Source: Micrococcales bacterium (GTDB taxonomy: Bacteria; Actinomycetota; Actinomycetes; S36-B12; GCA-2699445). Taken from it: DNA of 33,264 bases. Position numbers and translations under genes: made by a program. The stretch spans positions 1-33,264 of the forward strand of contig PAAU01000035.1 of NCBI GenBank assembly GCA_002699445.1, given 5' to 3'. Of this stretch, positions 9,257-33,264 are shown one piece after another. Below the pieces are notes generated by a model. It was not told where the DNA came from. It saw only the letters and a program-made list of their open reading frames with translations, and did no database searches. The stretch's first letter is position 1; each line of letters starts with the position of its first letter.

Positions 9257-9742
9257 ATGTCGCTTTGGTTCACTTGGCTGGCAGTATTTTCCGCGGTTTC
9301 GTACGGGATATTGGCGGGCGTCTTCTTGGCCTTTTCGGATTTCATCATGCGTTCGCTAAGTCAGATTTCTGGCAGTGGTGGGGTGGAAGCGATGCAGGTA
9401 ATCAATCGTGAAGTATTTCGTATTGTCTTCATGGTGCTGTTCATCGGCATGGCTCCGATCTCTCTAGTGCTCGTAGTACATGAACTGATGTGGGGTGGGT
9501 CTGAGGCACTGCTGCTAGTCGCCGCCGGCGCCGTTTATGTGGTGGGTTGTTTCGGGGTGACCGTCACTCGAAATGTTCCGTTAAATCAGGCCCTGGATGA
9601 TATGGAAACCGACAGCGCGTCGACCGTGGACTACTGGACGGAGACTTACGTTCCCCGATGGACTTTCTGGAATAGTGTGCGGACCTGTGCATGCGCTCTA
9701 GCCTCGGCATTGACCGTACTTGGTCTCGCTTGGCCGTTATAG
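9257..9742 (+). CDS. DUF1772 / anthrone oxygenase-like membrane protein
   Basis: About 4 TM segments; FLAFSDFIMRSL near the N-terminus and NVPLNQAL...WTETYVPRWTFWNSVRTCA near the C-terminus. Confidence 0.8.
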   Translation: MSLWFTWLAVFSAVSYGILAGVFLAFSDFIMRSLSQISGSGGVEAMQVINREVFRIVFMVLFIGMAPISLVLVVHELMWGGSEALLLVAAGAVYVVGCFGVTVTRNVPLNQALDDMETDSASTVDYWTETYVPRWTFWNSVRTCACALASALTVLGLAWPL

Positions 9743-13592: not shown

Positions 13593-14714
13593 ATGTTTCG
13601 TCTCTTGTTTGTTGCGTTGTGTGTTGTTGCTGCCGCTTTGGTGTTGCCGTCGGCCAGTAATGCCGACCCTTTTCCTCCCCCCGTCGGGGAGCCTTCGAGG
13701 TACACGACGTGGGGTAAGGGGGATAAGCAATGTGAACCGTGGCATGTGCCGCACACGAACTGCAAAAAGATTAGACATCGAGGATTAGAGTTTCGGGGCG
13801 GCAAAGCTCACAGAGTGAATGTGACAAAAGCAGATCTGCGTAACTCCAGTTTCGTTTGTTCAAAGATGCGTAACGCAAAAGGCGGTGCCACGGTCTGGAA
13901 AAACTCGGATTTCCGCGGCGCATCGATACCGGGCTTTAAAGCCCGCAAGAGTAATTTGTCGAACACAGATTTTTCGCCAACAAACTGCAACAAGAAGCCA
14001 AACAAGAAGCGGGCTCTGCGGGCGCAACCCCCATGTATGCCCGATTGCACCTCAGCGAATCTGAAAGGTGCGGACCTGAGATCTGCGGACCTGAGCGGCT
14101 CGAACCTGACCGGCGCGGATCTGAGCAAAGCGAACCTGACAGGTGCAAACGTGAGCGGCTCGAACCTGACCGGCGCGACCTTGAGCGGCGCCAACCTGAC
14201 AGGTGCAAACGTGAGCGGTTCGATCCTGAAGGACGCGCGGCTAAATCAGACGGTGCTATTCAACGCGAATCTGTCATTTTCGGGGACCCTGAGCGATAGG
14301 CAACTTGACGATGTGTTGTTCTTTCAAACAAAAATGCCTGACACGACCATCCGAAGCGACAATTTCATTCCAAAACCCAACGGTAATTTCAAAATCCTGG
14401 AAGATACGAACCTGAGGGGTGTAGACCTGAGCGGCGTAAAACTGATAGGTGCGCGCATCTCAGACTCGGACCTGACCGGCGCGAACCTGTCCGGTGCGGA
14501 CCTGTCCGGTGCAGACCTGTCCAGTACGAACCTGAGGGGTGTAGACCTGAGCGGCGCAAACCTGCGTAACGCGGACCTACGCTGGGCGAACCTGGTCCGC
14601 CCGGACCTGAGAAATGCGAACCTGACCAACGCGAAAATGCCTGAGAACACGGATGAATTGACCACCTGCAATACGACGATGTCGAATGGAACCATCGATA
14701 ACACCGACTGCTGA
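13593..14714 (+). CDS. Secreted pentapeptide-repeat protein
   Basis: Signal peptide MFRLLFVALCVVAAALVLPSASNA; long A(D/N)LxG arrays (ANLTGANVSGSNLTGATLSGANL...). Confidence 0.9.
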   Translation: MFRLLFVALCVVAAALVLPSASNADPFPPPVGEPSRYTTWGKGDKQCEPWHVPHTNCKKIRHRGLEFRGGKAHRVNVTKADLRNSSFVCSKMRNAKGGATVWKNSDFRGASIPGFKARKSNLSNTDFSPTNCNKKPNKKRALRAQPPCMPDCTSANLKGADLRSADLSGSNLTGADLSKANLTGANVSGSNLTGATLSGANLTGANVSGSILKDARLNQTVLFNANLSFSGTLSDRQLDDVLFFQTKMPDTTIRSDNFIPKPNGNFKILEDTNLRGVDLSGVKLIGARISDSDLTGANLSGADLSGADLSSTNLRGVDLSGANLRNADLRWANLVRPDLRNANLTNAKMPENTDELTTCNTTMSNGTIDNTDC

Positions 14715-16650: not shown

Positions 16651-16863
16651 ATCACTAGGGTCTTAGTAAGGACCTTGTATCGGAGTCAGACGGAGCTGGC
16701 CCGGGGTCGTCACAAATCGTTTTTCCGTAACGGTCAGTACTTTCACGACAGTTGCTAGCTGGACCGACGGTTATGATGTGAGGATGGACTGGAGTCAAAG
16801 TGTCGCTTGGTCGGGGGCGTCACATACGGTGTCGCAGGACCATGTGACACGCGGTCCATAATC

Positions 16864-18756
16864 ATGTTGCGGTCAGGTGCCTTCGACAAACCCATTCGCT
16901 GCGCAAGTGCAATTGTTCTGGTGATCGTGTCGGCACTTGTTGCCACATCCTGTGGCAACACGAGTGATGACGTTCGCACCGTCGAGGTGAACGCGCTTTG
17001 GTATGGCGTTAACCAGGAATCTGGTGAGTCTCAGGGCGGAGTTACGCCTGTTCTTATCCGGTTCTCGGCCCGAAGTAATGAACTCGACATTGATGTAGCG
17101 GACCAGAAGTCGTCAGGTGCGGGTTCACAGTGGGTTGCAGCATCATGGTTGGGCGCGACCACGAGCTTGCTGGACCACACAGTTGATCCGGCTACGGTCC
17201 GACTGATGTTTGAAATTTCAGAATCTATCGACGGGCCATCTGCAGGTGCGCTTATGGCCGTTGGGGTCGCAGCAGCGTTGCGTGGAGACTCGATTCACCC
17301 AAGGATGGCGATGACGGGAACCATTGAAGTGGATGGTTCCATTGGCGGTGTGGGTGGACTGCCTCAGAAAGTAAAAGGCGCTGCTTCCGCCGGTGTAGAG
17401 ACCGTTCTCATTCCCAGCGGACAACGAACGGTCCAGGCGTCAGGTTCTGGCGACTTAGTCGACTTGGTCGACATGGGCACGGAGCTTGGCGTTACTGTTC
17501 GTGAGGTTGACGATATTGCTCAGGCGTATCAGGTCATGACGGGTAAGGAATTGGATGGGGCGGATCTTGCCCCGGTTTCCGATCCGCTCACGGATAGTTT
17601 TGAGAAGAAACTGCAGGTGCTGACTCGAAACCGGTTAAAGGCTCTTGAAACCACGATGAAGATACTCGATGACCGCCAACCACGTGCGGCAGATCCCGCC
17701 TCCAACTGGTTTCAACGAGCCATCGATGCCCAGGAAGAAGCTAAGCGTGCCGCAGCGTCCGGAGACTCAACAGTTGCCTACGAATCAGCCATGACCGCCA
17801 GTCTGGTGGCGCAGCAGGCGTTGTCGACGATGGCTGTCAAGGATGCCATTCGCGCACAAGGCACGGCGTCGGTACGTGACCAGATATTGAGTAGGGCGCA
17901 ACGGCTGGATGATCGTGCGCGCAAAACGACGCGTGATCTAGCGAGTAGTTCCGAATTCTCGGAACCTGCGAGGGCTTTGGCCTTCGGCGACGCCCTCGCT
18001 TGGATCACGACCGGTGGTCTTGTTGCTTTCCTCACGGCCAATAGTTTGGAAGCGTCATCTGCGAAGCCAGCTCTGCTGAAAGAGGCTGGTGCGGCCCTTG
18101 CGCGCAGCGAGATATATTTCGAGTCGTCTCGAGATGCTTTGGTGTTGTTGAATGAATTGCGTGACGGTAGGAAACCTGCTGAAACAAACCATGTCGCGGT
18201 CGCGGATCTGATGTGGGAAGCCGGCAGTGCATCACTTGCCTACCTTGACGACGTCGTCCTCAACCGCATTTCGGGGGACACACCCTTATCGACCTCAAAG
18301 CGCAGCAATTTTTTGGAATCTCCCGATTCCGATTATGTATATGTGACTCAGTCAGAGGCTTATCTAGAGAAACTCGTCGAAGGACTTAATGCTTCTGCTG
18401 CAGCGACGGTGAAGTCTGCTGTCGCGCTGGAACGTTATGTCTACACCGCCTACTTGATTGCCAAGTACGAAACTCTGCAGTCATCCCTGGACATAGATGG
18501 TTACGTGAGCGGACCCGGTAACAGCGCACAACTTGATGAGTATGTGACGCTCGCCCAGGAGCATCTCGACGAGTTGATGTCCGAGACTGCAGCGGTGGGT
18601 ATTGACACATCGTATTTGTACCTGCTCGCCGAGTGGGGCACGTCCCGACACAGCCGGGGTAAGGCCAGCGGTAACGCACTTGATGAAACATATGCACTCG
18701 CATTCCTTTGGCGCGCATTCGTGATCGGCCAGATTCATCGTCTCGTATCGGGCTAA
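16864..18756 (+). CDS. Lipoprotein with Lon-protease (S16) proteolytic domain and long helical C-terminus
   Basis: Lipobox LVATSCG; S16 motifs IDGPSAGALMAVGVA (Ser) and GTIEVDGSIGGVGGLPQKVKGAASAGVETVLIP (Lys); no AAA+ domain. ORF is open upstream to 16807. Confidence 0.82.
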   Translation: MLRSGAFDKPIRCASAIVLVIVSALVATSCGNTSDDVRTVEVNALWYGVNQESGESQGGVTPVLIRFSARSNELDIDVADQKSSGAGSQWVAASWLGATTSLLDHTVDPATVRLMFEISESIDGPSAGALMAVGVAAALRGDSIHPRMAMTGTIEVDGSIGGVGGLPQKVKGAASAGVETVLIPSGQRTVQASGSGDLVDLVDMGTELGVTVREVDDIAQAYQVMTGKELDGADLAPVSDPLTDSFEKKLQVLTRNRLKALETTMKILDDRQPRAADPASNWFQRAIDAQEEAKRAAASGDSTVAYESAMTASLVAQQALSTMAVKDAIRAQGTASVRDQILSRAQRLDDRARKTTRDLASSSEFSEPARALAFGDALAWITTGGLVAFLTANSLEASSAKPALLKEAGAALARSEIYFESSRDALVLLNELRDGRKPAETNHVAVADLMWEAGSASLAYLDDVVLNRISGDTPLSTSKRSNFLESPDSDYVYVTQSEAYLEKLVEGLNASAAATVKSAVALERYVYTAYLIAKYETLQSSLDIDGYVSGPGNSAQLDEYVTLAQEHLDELMSETAAVGIDTSYLYLLAEWGTSRHSRGKASGNALDETYALAFLWRAFVIGQIHRLVSG

Positions 18757-20038: not shown

Positions 20039-21262
20039 CTACTTAGCGGAAGGGCACGTGGAGCCATTACCCTTTGTGCCGTCTGGCCAGCGAGTGCTGT
20101 CGTTGCAGGTGGCGTCGGACAGGTTGGCATCGCTCAGCTCGGCGTAGCGCAGGTTGGCATCGCGTAGGTCGGCGCCGGATAGGTCGGCGCCGCTCAGGTT
20201 GGCATCGCGTAGGTCGGCGTCGGATAGGTCTGTATCGCGCAGGGTGGTGCCGCGCAGGTTGGCGTCGAGCAGGTCAGCGTCATTAAGGTTGGCGGAGCTC
20301 AGGTCAGCATCGCGGAGGTTGGCGTCACGCATGCCGGCCCCGCTGAGGTTGGCTTCTTTAAGGTTGGCGGAGCTCAGGTCAGCGTTGCGCAGGTCGGCGC
20401 CGCTCAGGTCGGAATCGCGCAGGTCGGCCCCGCTGAGGTTGGCTTCTTTAAGGTTGGCGGAGCTCAGGTCAGCGCGGGATAGGTTAGCCGAGCTTAGGTC
20501 AGCGGACCTCAGGTCAACACGTTTAAGGGCGGCGCCGCTCTTATCGCAGCCGGACCAGTCCAATTTTGGCGCCGCTGATGCATCGCACTTAGTAGGGCAT
20601 CTGTTGTTGGGTCCAAGTTGGACCGGCTGGCTATTGGTCCACGTCGTCTCAGCGCTACAGCGACTGTCGGTCAAGACAGCATCGCGCACTAAGCCCTGGC
20701 GTTTCAGCTCGTCCAAACTCGGGCATGAAACTGGCCCCGGACATGACCCTGTTGTTCCTGATTTTACGCGCTGCGCTACGTAAGGGTCGCGATATAGATC
20801 GGCGTCCGAGAGGTTGGCGCCGGACAGGTTGGCGCCGGACAAGTTGGCACCAAGTAGTTTCGCGCCGGACAGATCCGCGTCGGATAGGTTGGCGCCGGAC
20901 AGGTCGACGCCCCATAGATAAGACCAGCGCAGGTTAGCTCCGGACAGGTCCGCGTCAGACATGTTCGTGCCAGTTAGGTTCGCCAAACGATTCGCCTTGT
21001 TAGTCAGGTTGACGCCGCGCAGATTAGCCCCGGACAGATCGGCGCCGCGCAGGTACTCGCCACGCTTATCGCAGCCAGACCAATCCACTCCTGGCGCCGG
21101 CGGCGCATCACACTCCTCAGTAACCGCCCCTGCTTCGCGTTCAACATCCTGGCCCGAGTCAGAAGATCCGCAAGCGCCCGCAATACCCACCACCAAGGCA
21201 AGCGCAGACGGTAACAATAGGCGTTTCAAGCGCCCTTGCGACTGCCCATACTGATAGCGCAC
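20039..21262 (-). CDS. Pentapeptide-repeat lipoprotein with two repeat blocks separated by a Cys-containing linker
   Basis: Lipobox GIAGACGSS; two DWSGCDK-preceded arrays of A(D/N)L(S/R)x repeats. Confidence 0.9.
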   Translation of the reverse strand: MRYQYGQSQGRLKRLLLPSALALVVGIAGACGSSDSGQDVEREAGAVTEECDAPPAPGVDWSGCDKRGEYLRGADLSGANLRGVNLTNKANRLANLTGTNMSDADLSGANLRWSYLWGVDLSGANLSDADLSGAKLLGANLSGANLSGANLSDADLYRDPYVAQRVKSGTTGSCPGPVSCPSLDELKRQGLVRDAVLTDSRCSAETTWTNSQPVQLGPNNRCPTKCDASAAPKLDWSGCDKSGAALKRVDLRSADLSSANLSRADLSSANLKEANLSGADLRDSDLSGADLRNADLSSANLKEANLSGAGMRDANLRDADLSSANLNDADLLDANLRGTTLRDTDLSDADLRDANLSGADLSGADLRDANLRYAELSDANLSDATCNDSTRWPDGTKGNGSTCPSAK

Positions 21263-23936: not shown

Positions 23937-25364
23937 ATGGACCACCACTCATCTTCGACACATGCCGATCGAACTCTCAACGTACCGCTGCTTGCAGTAA
24001 TGACCATCGTGATTCTTTATGGAATCGAAAATGCAGCGAGCATGGCTCAAATTGGCTGGGGATCAATAACAGCGTATGTGACTGCTGCGCTGTTTATTCT
24101 CATCCCAATCGGAGTAATCTCTGCCGAGTTAGCAAGCGGATGGCCTCACGATGGGGGGCTGTACCTCTGGGTGAGGGAAGCGTTTGGCCCGAAGTTCGGA
24201 TTCTTCGCTCTTTTTCAGCAATGGGTTGCGTGGGTCTTCACTATTCCTACCGTATTTACCTTTGTTGCAGTCACCGCTACATACGCTTTCGACTCGAGCC
24301 TGCAAGACAATCAGATTTATGCCGGCCTGACGGTTGTAGGGATCACTGTTATTGCGACCGGACTGAACTTCTTTGGCGTAAGGAAGTCGGGAATCGTTAG
24401 TGTGTTGAGCATTGTTTTCCTCGCAGTTATTCCCACTGTCACAATTTTGACGCTTGCGATTCGAGCGGTCATCCAAGGTCAAGTACAAGGAAACTTTGAG
24501 ACTAGTGATTTGTGGCTCTTTGGTGATTCTTCAGCATTTAAGTGGATTATCGCGGGTGTTAACTCATTTTTAGGACTCGAGATGAGTGCGTACTTCCTGA
24601 AACGGCTTCGGGATCCACAGCGTCAGTATCCGCTCGTTTTGATACTGGCTGGAATTCTGACGTTTACTTTCCTAACCCTCTTAACACTAGCGGTATTTCT
24701 GTTGAGCCCAAGCGGTTCAGTCAGCCTGACTGCCGGGATCATGGAGACAATCACTGCGTTATTTGATGCGCAGAATATCTCCTATCTTGTACCTGTTCTT
24801 GCAGCCCTCATCGCTTTAGGGGGATTGCTGAAGTCGAGCACAATAGTTATTGGACCGGCTGTCGGTCTACTTGCCAGTGCTCGTCACGGACATCTTCCGT
24901 CGAGGTTGGCAAGGGTGAACAAACACGGGGCTCCTGTAGCGATTTTAGTTATGCAAGGAGTCATCATTTTGATTGCTACGCTCGCGTTTGTCGTGCTCAA
25001 AAACGTCCAGACAACCTTTTTCCTGTTGTTGATCCTCTCGGTAATTCCCTACATGATCGCGTATCTCTTTATGTTCGCAGCTGCGGTTAGGCTGCGCTAC
25101 ACGCAACCAGATGTGCCTAGATCCTTCCGAGTGCCGGGTGGCAAGATTGGAATTTGGATCATCTCAATCATTGGTGTTGCGGCTTGCATCCTGGTTCTAG
25201 TGGATGGACTAAGTCCTCGATCTCTCCCCTCGGATGGTCGAGGGCTGACGGTAGTCTTAATACCGATAATCACTATCATTTTATGTATCGCCCCATTTGT
25301 CATAGATCGTCGAAATTCCCGGACCGATCCAATCGACCCGGAGTTTATTGACGAGGAACCCTAG
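23937..25364 (+). CDS. APC-family amino acid permease
   Basis: About 12 TM helices; IENAASMAQIGWGSITAYV, SAELASGWPHDGGLYLWVREAFGPKFGFFALFQQW motifs like GadC/YjeM-type transporters. Confidence 0.9.
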   Translation: MDHHSSSTHADRTLNVPLLAVMTIVILYGIENAASMAQIGWGSITAYVTAALFILIPIGVISAELASGWPHDGGLYLWVREAFGPKFGFFALFQQWVAWVFTIPTVFTFVAVTATYAFDSSLQDNQIYAGLTVVGITVIATGLNFFGVRKSGIVSVLSIVFLAVIPTVTILTLAIRAVIQGQVQGNFETSDLWLFGDSSAFKWIIAGVNSFLGLEMSAYFLKRLRDPQRQYPLVLILAGILTFTFLTLLTLAVFLLSPSGSVSLTAGIMETITALFDAQNISYLVPVLAALIALGGLLKSSTIVIGPAVGLLASARHGHLPSRLARVNKHGAPVAILVMQGVIILIATLAFVVLKNVQTTFFLLLILSVIPYMIAYLFMFAAAVRLRYTQPDVPRSFRVPGGKIGIWIISIIGVAACILVLVDGLSPRSLPSDGRGLTVVLIPIITIILCIAPFVIDRRNSRTDPIDPEFIDEEP

Positions 25365-25542
25365 GCCTAGTCGGAGTCATTGCAACTGGCTTCAGCTCAC
25401 ATTTGTTGAATCTGGCTCATTGAGTGGCTAGAGCTTTAATAAGCACATGCGAACACGCTAAATGGATATGAAAATACTAATATGAGGTGAGCGTCGAAGC
25501 GGGCGAGGCATCTGCCTTACGCCTGCGGAGAGGGGCGTCCTT

Positions 25543-28500
25543 ATGGACACCTTGAGCGACCTAGATGGTCATTTGGCGAGTGATACGGTTCCAAATGGAA
25601 CGCTGATCGAAGTCCTTCATGCAACAGTCGAAAGATTCAAAGAACGGCCTGCCATTGAAGGAGTTAATGAGCTCATCAGCTACGGAGAGCTGTGGAATCG
25701 CGCGAGAGATGTAGCGGACGAACTGCGATCTATTGGAGTAGGACCGGGCGAACGAGTAGGGGTCCGGGTCGCCAGCGGCACAACCGAGCTGTACATCGCG
25801 ATACTCGGGGTGCTGATGTCGGGGGCGGCATACGTCCCAGTTGATGTTGACGATCCGGAAAGTCGGGCTACCCAAGTTTTCGGAGAAGGAGACGTCTGCG
25901 CAATTCTCGAGGGGTCGGTTTCGGTTAATACCTCCCGCATGGAGATGGGACTATCGCTGCGGAATATTCGTGACGCACGCGCAACTCATGCGGATTTATC
26001 GCCCATCGACGATGCCTGGATTATCTTCACCTCTGGATCCACCGGAGTGCCAAAGGGAGTCGCCGCATCTCACCGGAGTGCTGTCGCATTTATTGCCGGC
26101 GAGGCGGCCCTTTGGAGTGTTGGTGAGGATGACAGAGTCCTAGCGGGTCTTTCGGTGGGCTTCGATGCCAGTTGCGAGGAAATGTGGTTGGCGTGGGCTA
26201 ACGGTGCCTGTCTCGTGCCCGCACCCAGAAACATTGTTCGTTCGGGCGTGGATCTTGGACCGTGGTTGGCAAGCCACAAGATAACCGTGGTCTCGACAGT
26301 GCCGACGCTGGCGGCGATGTGGGCTGATGATGCGTTGAGCGGCGTCCGTTTGATGATTTTTGGGGGAGAGGCCTGCCCCGAACAGTTGGGGTGGCGTATC
26401 GCGGCTGAGCGCGATGTGTGGAACACCTACGGGCCTACCGAGGCAACCGTGGTATCGACTGCAGGTCGGATCCTTCCCGATGAACCCATCACGATTGGTT
26501 GGCCACTCGAGGGTTGGGAGTGCGCGGTTATCGATGAAAACGGTGAACCCGTGCCGGTTGGTGAAGAGGGTGAACTGGTCATTGCTGGAGTAGGTCTAGC
26601 TCGTTATCTTCGCAGTGACTTGGACGAGGAGAAATATGCCCCATTACCTAGTCTGGGTTGGGAGCGGGCATATCGCTCTGGTGACATGGTTCGCGAGACT
26701 CCTTCCGGCTTTGCCTTTGCGGGGCGTACCGATGACCAAGTAAAAATCGGTGGTCGGAGAATCGAGCTGGGCGAGATTGAAGGGGTCTTAACGTCGTGCT
26801 CCGGTGTAGCGGCAGCCGCCGTCGTGGTGCAAAAAACCAAGGGCGGTAACTCGATGCTGATCGGTTATGTAACTGGTGATGTTGATATTGATGAGATCCG
26901 CCGAGATATCTCCGAACGGCTTCCGGCCTCGCTTGTGCCATTGCTGTGTCACCTGCCGGAACTCCCACTAAAGAGTTCGGGTAAGGCCGATAAGGCAGCG
27001 CTCCCGTGGCCGCTGCCTTCTGTGGCAGGAGATGACGCCGATTGGGATCCGATTCAACGTTGGGTTGCTGATCAAATAGCCGACCAACTCGGCCCGGTGC
27101 CAATGACACCAGAAAGTGACTTTTTCGAGATCGGCGGAACATCTGTCACGGCGGCAAAATTAGTATCGGTTCTGCGCCAAAAGTATCCCTCGGTAGCGGT
27201 TGCCGACGTATACCACTACCCCAAGATTGCCGACCTTGCCGACCGAGTTGAAGAACTCGCCGGCCCGGCTGAAGAACGAAGGAAGATCCCGGTTAGGCAC
27301 GCTAAGCGGTGGGCCGCAATAAGAACTTTCGGCATTTTGCTGCTGTTACTTTTCACGGTGCCGCAATGGGTCGTTATCGTCTTGGCCTACAACGAAGGAT
27401 TCGGTGGTGAGGATGGATATGGCCCTGGGTTCGTAGAAAACGCTTTAGGTCCGGCCGTCTCGGGTACATGGGTATGGGCTTGGATATCCATAACTGTCCT
27501 CTGGGTACTAATCGCGAATGCTCCACTTCGATCGATGGTCTACTTGCTAGTTCGTCGTCTCATGATGCGCAACGTCAAGCCGGGAAGATACCCGAAACAT
27601 GGTTGGATGAGTGCGAAAATTTGGTTTTTGCAGAAACTCGTAGTAACTCTCAACGTGAATCAAATCGCCGGTACGCCCTGGACTAACCGGCTTGCTCGAT
27701 GGAGCGGCGCAAAAGTTGCAGATGATGCCCGTTTAGTGGAGTTACCACCAATAACAGGTCTTATGACGGTCGGTTCCAAAGCCACTATCGAGGAAGAGGT
27801 CGATACCACTGGTTGGGTAATAGATGGTGAGGAACTGGTCATCGCGGAGTACATCATCGGTGCCGGCGCACGAGTTGGGACTCGGGCGCTTCTGATGCCA
27901 GGCTGCAATATCGGTGAGGGTGCAGAGATCTTGCCGGGTAGTGTCGTTGACCGTGAGATCCCAGCGGGGGAGCTGTGGGGTGGTTCCCCCATCGCGTCAT
28001 TGGGTGCCGCGGGCGAAACCTGGCCTGAAGAAGATCCAGAGCGAGAAGCCGCGACGATGCCCGGGAAGTTCATGTACGTAGTGGGCTTAGTCCTCTTGAG
28101 CCTACTGCCCTTGCTCGCTGCCTTACCTGGTTTGTTCTTGTTGATAAAACTTAATCAACCAGATCAAATGCATCCCGCCGGTCTATTCCTGTATTGGTTG
28201 GTTTGGGCCATCCCGATATCGCTGCTGTGGATTGTGATGTACAACCTCTTGATCGCGGCAACTCTGCGCATATGTATGCGCCTAATCAAGCCGGGGTTCC
28301 ATTCCGACTACGGGGGCGCCGCATGGGCGTACTGGTTTACACGTCAGGTCATGGTGGAAGCCCACATGTTTTTACGGTCTATCTTCTCGAGTATTTACAC
28401 AGCCAGTTGGCTTCGACTTCTGGGCTTAAAGGTAGGTAAAGGAACAGAAGTTTCGATCACTAGTGGTCTGAATTCGTACGTAAGTTTCGAAGATGGCAGT

Positions 28501-29445
28501 TTCGTAGCGGATGATGTTTTGTTTGCTACCGTTCGCCACAATCGAGGTTGGATGCACGTTCAAGGCATCAGTGTTGGTAGTAGGACCTTCCTGGGCAACA
28601 GCGTCATCGTCAAGGGTGGAACCGAACTCGGTGATGACAGTCTGGTTGGAGTATTGTCCAGCGCCCCACAAAAGCCGCCCGATGGTTCATCTTGGCTTGG
28701 GATGCCTCCCTTAGAGCTACCTCGGGTGCGAGAAAATGTCGATGTTTCCCGAACCATGGACCCTCCCACGAGGCTAAAAGTGGGTCGATCCATAGTTGAT
28801 GGGATTCGGATCTTGTTACCTGAAGTGATCTCGGTGATGCTTGCGACACTCGTGATATTTGCCGCGGATAGCATCGCCGACTCCACGGGTAGTACTTGGT
28901 GGATGGTTGTCGCGCTGCCATTTATCTTGTTGGGGGTGGGCCTACTTTCTTTGGTGGTCATGGTCATCTTGAAATGGGTACTGATGTTCCGTTATCGACC
29001 CGGCGGTCACCCGCTGTGGTCGTTCTTCTGTTGGCGAGACGAAATCATCAATGTGACTGGCGAAGTCGTTGCGGGTCTCTGGATGTTCCGATACGCGTTG
29101 GGAACTCCGATCATGCCCTGGTACTTCCGAGCGATGGGATCGAAGGTTGGTAAGAATCTGTGGTGCGACATGATCAATGCCACGGAATTCGATGTTATTA
29201 CTCTCGGCGACAACGTGAACCTAAATGCGGGTTCGTGTCTTGAAACTCATCTATTCCACGATCGCGTCATGAAAATCGGACCAACATACATCGGTGACGG
29301 TGCAACCCTTGGACCAAACTGCGCCGTTCTACCCGACACGGTTGTCGGTGAGGGTTGTCGAATCGGTGGTCGCTCAGTAGTGATGCGAGGTGAGACTCTG
29401 CCTCCTAATACTTCATGGCAGGGTGCCCCTGTGGTGTCTGCATGA
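25543..29445 (+). CDS. Pls/PosA-type single-module NRPS (A-PCP-multi-TM with LbH-like C-terminal domains); epsilon-poly-lysine synthase-like
   Basis: A domain IIFTSGSTGVPKG, FDASCEEMW, NTYGPTEATV, YRSGDMV, SSGKADK; PCP FFEIGGTSVTAAKL; about 6 TM segments interleaved with three hexapeptide-like blocks; 1300 aa. Confidence 0.9.
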   Translation: MDTLSDLDGHLASDTVPNGTLIEVLHATVERFKERPAIEGVNELISYGELWNRARDVADELRSIGVGPGERVGVRVASGTTELYIAILGVLMSGAAYVPVDVDDPESRATQVFGEGDVCAILEGSVSVNTSRMEMGLSLRNIRDARATHADLSPIDDAWIIFTSGSTGVPKGVAASHRSAVAFIAGEAALWSVGEDDRVLAGLSVGFDASCEEMWLAWANGACLVPAPRNIVRSGVDLGPWLASHKITVVSTVPTLAAMWADDALSGVRLMIFGGEACPEQLGWRIAAERDVWNTYGPTEATVVSTAGRILPDEPITIGWPLEGWECAVIDENGEPVPVGEEGELVIAGVGLARYLRSDLDEEKYAPLPSLGWERAYRSGDMVRETPSGFAFAGRTDDQVKIGGRRIELGEIEGVLTSCSGVAAAAVVVQKTKGGNSMLIGYVTGDVDIDEIRRDISERLPASLVPLLCHLPELPLKSSGKADKAALPWPLPSVAGDDADWDPIQRWVADQIADQLGPVPMTPESDFFEIGGTSVTAAKLVSVLRQKYPSVAVADVYHYPKIADLADRVEELAGPAEERRKIPVRHAKRWAAIRTFGILLLLLFTVPQWVVIVLAYNEGFGGEDGYGPGFVENALGPAVSGTWVWAWISITVLWVLIANAPLRSMVYLLVRRLMMRNVKPGRYPKHGWMSAKIWFLQKLVVTLNVNQIAGTPWTNRLARWSGAKVADDARLVELPPITGLMTVGSKATIEEEVDTTGWVIDGEELVIAEYIIGAGARVGTRALLMPGCNIGEGAEILPGSVVDREIPAGELWGGSPIASLGAAGETWPEEDPEREAATMPGKFMYVVGLVLLSLLPLLAALPGLFLLIKLNQPDQMHPAGLFLYWLVWAIPISLLWIVMYNLLIAATLRICMRLIKPGFHSDYGGAAWAYWFTRQVMVEAHMFLRSIFSSIYTASWLRLLGLKVGKGTEVSITSGLNSYVSFEDGSFVADDVLFATVRHNRGWMHVQGISVGSRTFLGNSVIVKGGTELGDDSLVGVLSSAPQKPPDGSSWLGMPPLELPRVRENVDVSRTMDPPTRLKVGRSIVDGIRILLPEVISVMLATLVIFAADSIADSTGSTWWMVVALPFILLGVGLLSLVVMVILKWVLMFRYRPGGHPLWSFFCWRDEIINVTGEVVAGLWMFRYALGTPIMPWYFRAMGSKVGKNLWCDMINATEFDVITLGDNVNLNAGSCLETHLFHDRVMKIGPTYIGDGATLGPNCAVLPDTVVGEGCRIGGRSVVMRGETLPPNTSWQGAPVVSA

Positions 29446-30029
29446 TCGGACTTCCGGAAGAGCGAACGTCGCTACTCATAGGGGATCCACAGGTTATATC
29501 GGTGCACCAGACTATGCCGCTAGTCGCACACGATAATCCCGATGAGTTGGGTCAGTTGCCGAAGGTTTACTTGGTCAGCGCAGATGTGACAAAACTCAAC
29601 TCGGATCAACTCCGTGCAGCAACTCGAATCGCCTGCAAAGAAAAAGGCGCAATGGGCGGTTCACGCGAGCACCAGACTTCCCGGTCTTATCGGTTCCCCT
29701 TTGCGTTATTTGCTGTCCACTCCGATTCCGTTGGTATCGATATCGAATTTGTGGACCCTTACGACCCCGTTTTTGCCGAATCCATTTGCACCCCAGCAGA
29801 ATGGTCCAAGAGTCAGACTCGTCCCGAAACGTCTCTCGAAGTTGCCGATGTTTGGTCCTCGAAGGAGGCGTTGGCGAAAGCTCTCGGTGACGCGGTGAAA
29901 TACGATCCGAGGCGATTGCCGAGCTTGGCGCTGACCCCAGACAGTGCAACGGGTGCATGGCACACTGCGAGGATAGACGTACCCTTCGGATACACCGGAT
30001 GGGTTGTGTGGAAACATGAGAATGCGTAA
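29442..30029 (+). CDS. 4'-phosphopantetheinyl transferase superfamily protein
   Basis: VGIDIEFV and VWSSKEALAKALGDAVKYDPR; start overlaps the NRPS stop (ATGA). Confidence 0.85.
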   Translation: MIGLPEERTSLLIGDPQVISVHQTMPLVAHDNPDELGQLPKVYLVSADVTKLNSDQLRAATRIACKEKGAMGGSREHQTSRSYRFPFALFAVHSDSVGIDIEFVDPYDPVFAESICTPAEWSKSQTRPETSLEVADVWSSKEALAKALGDAVKYDPRRLPSLALTPDSATGAWHTARIDVPFGYTGWVVWKHENA

Positions 30030-31497
30030 GCGCCGTAGCGATCTGCTTGTTACCGTAGCGATTTGCTCGGCCGTAGTGGTTGTTGGTTGTTCCTCGAACT
30101 CGGGCTCTAGGTCGGCGCCGGGGGTGGCCGTTTCTGGATCGGCATCGACCTCGGTAAGTTCGGCTGAAGCTATCGATTTGGATCCGACACCTCCCAAGAG
30201 ATCAGCAGCCAAGGGCTTGTCCAAAGTTCGCAAATGCTCCGATCAAAAACGAACGGAGTGCGCAACGCTTCGGGTGCCGTTGAACTACGCAAATGCCGGT
30301 GGTAAGAAGCTTTCGCTTCCGGTGCGCTGGTCGACTCGCGCTGGTACGAATGCCCCTACACTGCTGTACCTCAATGGTGGGCCTGGGCTAGGTAACAACA
30401 GACAGTTTCTGAAGAGCACGCTCAACAAATTGCCAAAAGTGGCAAAAAACTATCGAGTCGCGGTTATCGAGACACGAGGTACTGGTGACACCGCACTCGA
30501 TTGCCCGAAATTGCAGGCCGATCCGGACGCGGTCGAAGACGTCATGCCAATGCGTCCTAATCAGATCGAAGGGTGTGGGAAACGGATTGGGGAGAAGCGA
30601 AAGTTCTATACAACAGAGCAGACCATTGCTGATCTGGACCGTTACCGTCGCGCTTTGAGAATTTCCTCTTGGGCGGTCATGGGCTTCTCCTACGGGACAT
30701 TTGAAGCACAACGTTACGCGATCGCATATCCAGCAAGAACCGACACGCTTACTCTAGACGGGGTGGTGCGGCAGGATGGGGGAGACGCCTTTTATACCCC
30801 GGCATTGCACGAGACCGGTCGAGTGCTACGTGAAGTCTGCGCCGAAAAAAACTGCGGCTACGATCCCGCAGCGGATCTGAATAAAATCGTTGTCGAGGGT
30901 ATGGATGGTGTCGCTATCTTCAACGCGCTTTTGTTTGCAACATTGAAGCAGCCCTATGTTTACGGGTTAATCAAGGCGATACACAAGGCGGCCAACGGAA
31001 ATAAGCGGCCGTTACGACAACAGATTAAGATCTATCCGGCAGATCCGACGTCAGCTTCGGAATACAGTGTGGGGCTGTTTCTCGCCACAATGTGCACAGA
31101 CATGCGATTTCCATACGGAACATCCAAAGCGCCGCTCAAGAGTCGCCCCGCCGCGATTCGGGAGGGGGTCAATGAGATCAATCCCGCGGCACTGTATCCA
31201 TTCGACCGGACCACTGCTCGAGGGCAGGGACAGATTTCCAACTGCCGACATTGGCCAAGGACTCGCCCGGGTCGATTCACCAACGCAAAGTTCCCGGACA
31301 TGCCTACGCTGGTAATCAACGGTGATTGGGATCTTGCGACTCCCGTATCAGACGCTCGCGCGCAAGCCGCCCGAATTCCGAATTCCCAGATGGTGGTGGT
31401 CCCACGATGGGGTCACGAGACCATTGCCAATCCGTATGGAGCTTCTCAGATCTCTGGTTTTCTTTTGCGGGAAAAGCCGAGCGTGGTAGATCAGTGA
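30016..31497 (+). CDS. Alpha/beta-hydrolase lipoprotein, TAP-like (tripeptidyl aminopeptidase family)
   Basis: Lipobox VVVGCSS; LYLNGGPGLGNN; GFSYGTFEAQRYA nucleophile elbow; C-terminal LVINGDWDLATPVSDARAQA...PRWGHET. Confidence 0.87.
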   Translation: MRMRKRRSDLLVTVAICSAVVVVGCSSNSGSRSAPGVAVSGSASTSVSSAEAIDLDPTPPKRSAAKGLSKVRKCSDQKRTECATLRVPLNYANAGGKKLSLPVRWSTRAGTNAPTLLYLNGGPGLGNNRQFLKSTLNKLPKVAKNYRVAVIETRGTGDTALDCPKLQADPDAVEDVMPMRPNQIEGCGKRIGEKRKFYTTEQTIADLDRYRRALRISSWAVMGFSYGTFEAQRYAIAYPARTDTLTLDGVVRQDGGDAFYTPALHETGRVLREVCAEKNCGYDPAADLNKIVVEGMDGVAIFNALLFATLKQPYVYGLIKAIHKAANGNKRPLRQQIKIYPADPTSASEYSVGLFLATMCTDMRFPYGTSKAPLKSRPAAIREGVNEINPAALYPFDRTTARGQGQISNCRHWPRTRPGRFTNAKFPDMPTLVINGDWDLATPVSDARAQAARIPNSQMVVVPRWGHETIANPYGASQISGFLLREKPSVVDQ

Positions 31498-31560: not shown

Positions 31561-33264
31561 TTAGCCGTTGGCTCGCTTAGTCGTGATGGCCGGACTGGGC
31601 AGCGAGTTGCCGAACACCCCAACGTTGAGCGAACCGAGTCCGGTCGCTCGATCGTAGCCTTTTCCGGCAGAGCAGCATCCTTGATCGTAAGGGTCGTTGT
31701 TGCCTTTGCGGATGTCATGGATCTGCGACGAACTGGAACCTAAGTCGTACAGCAGTGGCGACAACAGTCCCAGGGTAGGTCGTCCTTGAGCGATTTCGTT
31801 GCCACCGATAGTCGCGACGCTGGCCGCCAAGAGCGGTGTTGCCGCACTGGTGCCGCTCACTATTGTGGGCAGCCCAGAGTCACCCGTCCATAGCGGCCAA
31901 CCGGGACCGAGACTAGCGTGAGCGGAAATGTCGGGTACGGATCGCGTCTTACCGGAAATCCCGGCCTTGCGTTGCCACCACGGCTTAGCGACTAGAACGG
32001 ACTTACCGCCCCCGCCGGCGGTTGGTTGTGGCCCGATCGGTGGCTGCAAGCCTTCATCATTCCAGGCGTATTCCTTCTTTCGGGAGTTGTCTTTATTGAG
32101 GACAATCCGGGAGCCACCGACTGCGATGAAACTCGACAGCGACGAGGGCAACCCGACGGCCTTTTGCTTGTCTCCCGTAAAGTTCGTGCAACCGCTGGAT
32201 CCGTAATCTCCAGAGGCTGCAAAAACCGAAACTCCGGCCAGAGCCAATCGATTGGCCACAGAATCAGCCATTTGGAAACCAGTCGCCAAGTACGGCGAAG
32301 TTTCGCCAAGAATTAACTCACAGATGGCATAGGAGAGTGACACTGCGTTGGGCAGTTCACCCCGGTATGCAGCGGCATATGCCAGGAATGTTCGAGGGTC
32401 CGCGGTGAACGGAGCCTGTTCGATGATGTCAACCGAGCTTCCAACAGGTAAAACTGATTGCGCAACCTGAACATCCAAGTCACCCTCATCGCCATCGGGT
32501 AGCGCCCCCAGAAGGCCGGGTACGGAACTTCGCGTGAAGGACATCTTTGGAAGTTTGAAACACTCGCGAGAGAATTCCAGATTCTCTTCTGAGTAGCCCG
32601 AACCCCATGCGATGATCGCGAGTTTAGTTTGGCGACCTACTCGCTTTTTCCTGGGCAACTCATCGATTCCATAAGCAGTGTTCAGCTGGTTGTAGGCGTA
32701 TGACGTCTCTGCAAAACCCAGCTTCGTACCGGGAACGGTGATTGGAGCATTCTTGAGGCAACCTTTGGGTGTTCCCAGATTTCTGCCCGCGAATGACTTA
32801 GGACCTTCGGACTGTTTTGAGACTGGGATCTCAGCACCAGAAAGTTCGGTGAAATCCGCGAGAACATCAAGCGGCACCCATTCACCCTTGCGAACAAATT
32901 TTCGAATGCTCGCAGGCGGTTCACTTGGCCAGCCAATCTGCAGAGTTGTCCCGTCCAATAAGAACTCACCCTGGAACTCGACACCGAGCCAGGACGACAT
33001 GACGTCGGCTGGACCCGAGATTGCGCCGAAGATCCCTGTTGGATCCATCTTGAGATCTAGTCCAGCAGAACTAACTTCTGCACGAACGGCATTGATGTCT
33101 TTGCGACTTGCCCCATATCGTTTCCGAATTTGTTTCCGACTTGGAAAGACCCGATAGGTTTTGGATCCTGGGGTCGAAACCTTCCTCAGATCACGGTCAG
33201 CTGCTTTCTCATCACGGCGAAATCCGAAATGAATTGAGACGTTTCGTTCTGCTTCTGCGATCAA
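31561..33264 (-). CDS. S53 family (sedolisin/kumamolisin-like) peptidase with pro-domain, 5' end beyond the window
   Basis: Pro-kumamolisin-like N-terminus; EGDLD (Glu/Asp of the triad), GVSVFAASGDYGSSGC, SGTSAATPLLAA (Ser). Frame is open to the window edge. Confidence 0.88.
   Translation of the reverse strand: MIAEAERNVSIHFGFRRDEKAADRDLRKVSTPGSKTYRVFPSRKQIRKRYGASRKDINAVRAEVSSAGLDLKMDPTGIFGAISGPADVMSSWLGVEFQGEFLLDGTTLQIGWPSEPPASIRKFVRKGEWVPLDVLADFTELSGAEIPVSKQSEGPKSFAGRNLGTPKGCLKNAPITVPGTKLGFAETSYAYNQLNTAYGIDELPRKKRVGRQTKLAIIAWGSGYSEENLEFSRECFKLPKMSFTRSSVPGLLGALPDGDEGDLDVQVAQSVLPVGSSVDIIEQAPFTADPRTFLAYAAAYRGELPNAVSLSYAICELILGETSPYLATGFQMADSVANRLALAGVSVFAASGDYGSSGCTNFTGDKQKAVGLPSSLSSFIAVGGSRIVLNKDNSRKKEYAWNDEGLQPPIGPQPTAGGGGKSVLVAKPWWQRKAGISGKTRSVPDISAHASLGPGWPLWTGDSGLPTIVSGTSAATPLLAASVATIGGNEIAQGRPTLGLLSPLLYDLGSSSSQIHDIRKGNNDPYDQGCCSAGKGYDRATGLGSLNVGVFGNSLPSPAITTKRANG

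What the first reader, a model, noticed from the sequence alone, without database searches (positions are those of the whole stretch)
23937..31497. Candidate epsilon-poly-lysine (homopoly-amino-acid) biosynthesis locus
Seen: APC permease, 1300-aa single-module NRPS with A-PCP-TM/LbH architecture, PPTase and hydrolase lipoprotein, all on one strand. NRPS to PPTase overlaps by ATGA, and the hydrolase start lies inside the 3' end of the PPTase gene. Established: epsilon-poly-L-lysine synthetase (Pls) of Streptomyces has this A-PCP-TM-tandem C-like layout with no thioesterase and similar length. Inference: the locus makes a secreted cationic isopeptide. The dedicated PPTase and permease in one cluster would make a compact, self-sufficient system, possibly in a lineage not known for it.
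Basis: partly seen in the sequence, partly recalled or inferred. Interest (0 to 1): 0.75.

Follow-up and report, generated by a model that had tools for sequence, protein, structure and literature searches.

The report
Divergent epsilon-polylysine synthetase locus with PPTase
This uncultured actinobacterium carries what is very probably a gene for the natural antimicrobial polymer epsilon-polylysine, in an early-branching version whose partner gene switches the enzyme on rather than, as usual, breaking the polymer down.

Summary
25543-29445 encodes a 1300-aa single-module A-T-(TM2-LbH)x3 protein. It passes NCBI's Pls/PosA cut-off (519.9 against 423.1 bits). Its A domain is 55% identical to the solved epsilon-polylysine synthetase A domain, with an identical ten-residue substrate pocket (DAESIGTVVK), so lysine is the predicted substrate. 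The pls-PPTase overlap (ATGA) and the hydrolase start inside the PPTase gene are real.

Two corrections. The APC permease is a loose neighbour (178 bp gap) with no counterpart beside any of 131 related pls genes. The class is not new for pls (100 of 395 genomes), but the order is poor in it (4 of 166).

What is new is the context. In 118 of 131 related loci pls is followed by an M1 peptidase of the PldII type. The window and its three nearest relatives (two Thermoleophilia, one bog bin labelled Chlamydiae) have a related PPTase there and no M1 gene. These four form a 100/99-supported clade, sister to the PldII-linked enzymes. The S33 lipoprotein is unique to the window and may stand in for PldII (speculative). 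A new variant of a known kind; moderate interest.

The parts
25543..29445 (+). pls-type synthetase, 1300 aa: A domain (about aa 17-493), T domain (506-569, phosphopantetheine Ser534), then three repeats of a TM helix pair followed by a left-handed beta-helix (about aa 587-1300); no thioesterase
   Evidence: TIGR02353 519.9 bits, cut-off 423.1; Pfam domains; 54.8% identity to 7wew A domain and same code DAESIGTVVK; hydropathy; AlphaFold2 model pLDDT 85.4, pTM 0.87; Foldseek to hexapeptide acyltransferases
29442..30029 (+). Sfp-type 4'-phosphopantetheinyl transferase, 195 aa from ATG 29442, with VGIDIE and WSSKEALAK motifs; overlaps pls stop by ATGA
   Evidence: PF01648; 40-46% identical to PPTases directly downstream of pls in L033, L034, L035; sequence read
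30016..31497 (+). secreted lipoprotein of the S33 / TAP-like alpha/beta-hydrolase family; lipobox VVVGC; GFSYG serine, D and H of the triad present; start overlaps the PPTase gene
   Evidence: ORF 30004-31497; Abhydrolase_1 and TAP-like; weak PDB kin proline iminopeptidase, Hip1, carboxylesterase A; not found beside pls elsewhere
23937..25364 (+). APC-family amino-acid permease, GadC/AdiC-like, 475 aa; 178-bp gap to pls; link to the pathway uncertain
   Evidence: no counterpart in the flanks of related pls loci; GC 0.49 against 0.54-0.55 for pls, PPTase and hydrolase

Best explanation
A pls-PPTase(-S33 lipoprotein) operon that makes epsilon-poly-L-lysine. The PPTase attaches phosphopantetheine to Ser534 of the T domain. 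The A domain activates L-lysine and loads it there. The three membrane-anchored left-handed beta-helix repeats then form epsilon-isopeptide bonds one after another without a thioesterase, and the cationic chain leaves the cell. The S33 lipoprotein, outside the cell, may trim or degrade the polymer in place of the M1 peptidase PldII. Shown here: family, domain layout, pocket identity, gene overlaps, phylogeny and conserved pls-PPTase linkage. Inferred: lysine as substrate, polymer as product, PPTase-T domain pairing. Speculative: the roles of the S33 protein and of the permease.
For: Pls/PosA family above cut-off. Best PDB match is the epsilon-poly-L-lysine synthase A domain 7wew, 520 bits, 54.8% identity over 487 columns, pocket DAESIGTVVK in both. 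The code is shared by 83 of 86 aligned rows and differs in outgroups: DLEDIGSVVK and DLEDIGTVVK in Azospirillum and Rhizobium, DFECLSAVTK in a Streptomyces gene beside dat and ask. Alanine at the second code position marks lysine activators (PMC10522769). The window groups with L033-L035, sister to PldII-linked synthetases, within one 100/100 clade apart from the outgroups. PPTase linkage is conserved in all four, overlapping TGATG in L034 and ATGA here. Six TM helices in three pairs plus three beta-helices, as described for this family in PMC10522769.
Against: No product, expression or enzyme data. Whole-protein identity to Streptomyces-type enzymes is only 42-46%, and the window lies on a long branch (0.84) outside the clade that, by taxon, should hold the proven epsilon-polylysine producers. 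The product could differ in length or linkage. The S33 and APC genes have no comparative support as pathway genes. A clade with an intact pocket can still be silent: C. variabile made no polymer until its gene was expressed in Streptomyces (PMC8117764).
Confidence: 0.82

Rival explanations
1. The enzyme is a Pls/PosA-family synthetase, but it polymerises another diamino acid (ornithine, diaminobutyrate, diaminopropionate, beta-lysine) or makes only short oligomers.
For: Pls/PosA enzymes with other pockets make other polymers (PMC10522769). The window clade is sister to, not inside, the PldII-linked clade.
Against: The pocket is identical to the solved lysine enzyme at all ten positions. PosA has Met and the PDAP/PDAB enzymes have Phe at position 2 (PMC10522769). 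Chain length cannot be read from sequence.
Confidence: 0.11
2. The locus is a decaying or silent acquired fragment with no product in this organism.
For: It lies outside the block that is collinear with the genus mate (collinearity stops at about 5.5 kb). It is absent from the other members of genus and family searched.
Against: All motifs and reading frames are intact. Gene overlaps are preserved, and the PPTase co-segregates with pls across four lineages.
Confidence: 0.06
3. Adjacent genes are unrelated; the PPTase serves another carrier protein, and the S33 and APC genes are housekeeping.
For: S33 and APC are not conserved beside pls. The genome has three further ACPS-domain genes.
Against: For the PPTase: the same related PPTase sits at the same place in three other lineages and has no close paralogue in the host. 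For S33 and APC this rival stands.
Confidence: 0.4

Closest known systems
epsilon-poly-L-lysine synthetase Pls of Streptomyces albulus (A domain 7wew) and its pls-pldII operon
   Same: A-T-(TM2-LbH)x3 layout, length, no thioesterase, identical ten-residue pocket, A domain 55% identical; a translationally coupled downstream gene
   Different: No PldII (M1) gene downstream; a PPTase and an S33 lipoprotein instead. Window clade is sister to the PldII-linked clade; AU test rejects joining the window to that clade, p 0.007
pls-PPTase loci of Conexibacter sp. S30A1 (L035), a Solirubrobacterales MAG (L034) and a bog bin labelled Chlamydiae (L033)
   Same: Nearest synthetases (47-50%), same pocket, related PPTase directly downstream, no M1 gene
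   Different: No S33 hydrolase or APC permease found in their flanks; only about 1 kb of sequence is held after pls in L033
PosA, delta-poly-L-ornithine synthetase of Acinetobacter baumannii
   Same: Family, layout and proposed C-terminal fold (PMC10522769)
   Different: Pocket DMEHNGTVSK, ornithine substrate (PMC10522769)
Rhizobium sp. CCGE532 Pls/PosA gene with adjacent PPTase (L129)
   Same: PPTase directly downstream
   Different: Pocket DLEDIGTVVK, and the PPTase shows no significant similarity: an independent linkage

Membership tests
Pls/PosA family (cationic homopoly-amino-acid synthetases, NCBIfam TIGR02353) | Score over the curated TIGR02353 cut-off | tested here: met
   519.9 bits against 423.1, profile positions 16-695 of 695
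Pls/PosA family (cationic homopoly-amino-acid synthetases, NCBIfam TIGR02353) | A-T followed by six TM helices in three pairs and three soluble repeats, no classical C or TE domain | tested here: met
   Pfam, hydropathy, model with three helix pairs and three beta-helices, hexapeptide acyltransferase matches
epsilon-poly-L-lysine synthetase (Pls) | Lysine-type substrate pocket identical or near-identical to proven Pls | tested here: met
   DAESIGTVVK in window and 7wew; 83 of 86 aligned rows
epsilon-poly-L-lysine synthetase (Pls) | At least 40% identity over 80% of length to confirmed Pls proteins (cut-off used in PMC8117764) | tested here: inconclusive
   42-50% over about 98% of the protein to relatives that have the Pls pocket, but the confirmed full-length Pls sequences themselves were not on hand; the A domain alone is 54.8% identical to 7wew
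epsilon-poly-L-lysine synthetase (Pls) | Falls in the Pls clade rather than with other homopolymer synthetases | tested here: met
   Inside the 100/100 clade opposite the outgroups, but as a separate 4-row branch, sister to the rest
pls-pldII operon | M1 metallopeptidase PldII translationally coupled downstream | tested here: not met
   PPTase and S33 hydrolase occupy that place; the two M1 genes of the genome lie on other contigs
epsilon-poly-L-lysine synthetase (Pls) | Makes epsilon-linked polylysine | not testable with these tools
   Needs expression and mass spectrometry

The most novel reading that the evidence does not exclude
A second, early-branching type of epsilon-polylysine operon exists, in which the synthetase is inherited with its own dedicated PPTase and without PldII. 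In this organism an S33 lipoprotein has taken over polymer trimming or self-protection.
Probability: 0.25. Interest if true: 0.6.

Novelty: new variant of a known kind. Interest (0 to 1): 0.42.

Why it matters
PldII is thought to protect Pls producers and to degrade the polymer. A Pls clade that naturally lacks it, and carries a dedicated activating enzyme, lets one ask what sets chain length and self-protection, and offers a compact pls-PPTase pair for expression. It also suggests that the pls-pldII pairing arose after the split from the Thermoleophilia-type branch, if the root is right.

Tried and rejected
Permease as a conserved lysine supplier or exporter: no counterpart in the flanks of 131 related loci, and it is GadC-like by sequence only. 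S33 hydrolase as a conserved partner: absent beside pls in the other loci (one distant S33 hit 4 kb upstream on the other strand in L052); relatives in the host's family are only about 30% identical. Contig mis-binning: rejected, because window 1-5.5 kb is collinear with the genus mate at 52-76% identity. PPTase on plasmids: no match. Two paper queries failed on syntax. Promoter and terminator scans: promoter-like sites fewer than in shuffles, terminator-like sites more than in shuffles but mostly inside genes, so not informative.

Full report
Observation. The synthetase stop (29443-29445) overlaps the likely PPTase start (ATG 29442) as ATGA, and the hydrolase starts before the PPTase stop. 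The permease is different: 178 bp separate it from pls, and its GC is 0.49 against 0.54-0.55 for the other three. So the tight unit is pls-PPTase-hydrolase, with the permease as a neighbour.

What the synthetase is. The 1300-aa protein passes NCBI's curated cut-off for the Pls/PosA family (519.9 against 423.1 bits). It has AMP-binding, PP-binding and hexapeptide-repeat domains. Its best match among solved structures is the A domain of epsilon-poly-L-lysine synthase, 7wew, at 54.8% identity over 487 columns. The ten pocket residues D208 A209 E212 S251 I272 G274 T295 V303 V304 K481 read DAESIGTVVK, identical to 7wew and shared by 83 of 86 aligned rows, the window included. Outgroup members read DLEDIGSVVK, DLEDIGTVVK and DFECLSAVTK; the last of these sits beside a diaminobutyrate transaminase and an aspartate kinase, the context described for gamma-poly-diaminobutyrate synthetase (PMC8117764). 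The pocket literature says that alanine at position 2 marks lysine activators, methionine ornithine, phenylalanine the shorter diamino acids (PMC10522769). Lysine is therefore the predicted substrate; this is inference from sequence.

C-terminal part. Hydropathy shows three pairs of TM segments. An AlphaFold2 model of residues 495-1300 from 24 homologues (mean pLDDT 85.4, pTM 0.87) shows three repeats of a long helix pair followed by a left-handed beta-helix. Foldseek matches the beta-helices to hexapeptide acyltransferases (TM-scores normalised by the query are low because only one repeat aligns). This agrees with the model proposed for PosA (PMC10522769).

Relatives and context. A named-genome scan returned 80 loci. 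Three are nearest: a bog bin labelled Chlamydiae (L033, 50%), a Solirubrobacterales MAG (L034, 50%) and Conexibacter sp. S30A1 (L035, 47%). The others are 40-44% identical and come from Streptomyces, Nocardia, Arthrobacter and the like. With whole-genome and plasmid loci added, 131 loci were examined for what follows pls: an M1 metallopeptidase directly downstream in 118, M1 elsewhere in the stretch in 3, none in 7, and a PPTase related to the window's in 3. Those 3 are exactly L033-L035. Some loci may be duplicates between collections, and those from whole genomes hold only 1.5 kb of flank. PldII of S. albulus is reported as the major polymer-degrading enzyme, an aminopeptidase translationally coupled to pls (PMC9223678). 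Thus the window's branch has a PPTase where the rest have PldII-type genes. No relative has the S33 hydrolase or the APC permease beside pls.

Phylogeny. In a mixture-model tree of 24 synthetases the window and L033-L035 form one clade (bootstrap 100, SH-aLRT 99), sister to the remaining 17 Pls-type proteins (92/99). Placing the window with those 17 is rejected (AU p 0.007; the group was chosen after an earlier tree was seen, so the p-value is somewhat optimistic). A 45-row tree agrees. The four PPTases align over their catalytic part with VG(I/V)D and SKEAL motifs, 40-46% identical to the window's, while the window PPTase has no close paralogue in its own genome (best E 0.007). This fits a pls-PPTase pair inherited or transferred together. 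A Rhizobium Pls/PosA gene also has an adjacent PPTase, but with a different pocket and no significant similarity, so PPTase linkage has probably arisen more than once.

Host and distribution. The genome is 2.4 Mb, 92% complete. Window 1-5.5 kb is collinear with a genus mate at 52-76% identity, and no later window ORF has a match on that contig. So the contig belongs to the host, and pls lies in a variable region. In the order, 4 of 166 genomes have such a gene; the one checked by hand (G028) has an M1 gene downstream. In the class sample it is 100 of 395. In the phylum sample of 397 it is 22, all in the same class, although Thermoleophilia members do exist in the named collection. The class contains many genomes of 5-11 Mb, consistent with Actinomycetes; an order with genomes of 1.2-1.8 Mb would fit Nanopelagicales. 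Both names are my inference, untested.

Mechanism. Most likely: PPTase activates the T domain, the A domain loads lysine, the three membrane-anchored beta-helix repeats polymerise it through epsilon-amino groups without a thioesterase, and the chain is released outside. Steps shown: architecture, pocket, linkage. Steps inferred: substrate, product, PPTase pairing. The S33 lipoprotein has a lipobox and a serine-hydrolase triad by eye, and belongs to a family that includes exo-acting aminopeptidases (general knowledge); a PldII-like role is a guess. The permease role is open.

Verdict. The 'self-sufficient with permease' claim is not supported, and 'lineage not known for it' holds only at order level. 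The locus is a new variant of a known kind: Pls-type by every sequence test available, in a PldII-less, PPTase-linked branch that I did not find described in the papers searched.

Noticed in passing
13593-14714 (+) and 20039-21262 (-): Two pentapeptide-repeat proteins in the same variable region, both above the NCBIfam Alr5209-family cut-off.
   Followed up: no
31561-33264 (-): Pro-kumamolisin (S53-type) protease gene running off the contig end, convergent with the hydrolase gene.
   Followed up: no
16807-18756 (+): 649-aa protein with a Lon_C protease-like segment, patchily present in the family.
   Followed up: partly
L033: Record titled Chlamydiae bacterium carries a pls-PPTase pair closest to actinobacterial ones: a mis-binned contig or a transfer.
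   Followed up: partly
L026:5899-9886: Arthrobacter StoSoilB13 plasmid pls reads as two overlapping ORFs (894 and 469 aa), so a frameshift or sequencing error, with an M1 gene downstream.
   Followed up: no
L025 (pMAH135 of Mycobacterium avium): Plasmid-borne Pls/PosA gene without an M1 partner, beside a cysteine-synthase-like gene and large NRPS genes.
   Followed up: no
9257-9742 (+): Anthrone-oxygenase-like protein with a sub-cut-off match to the maturation helper ChrI.
   Followed up: no
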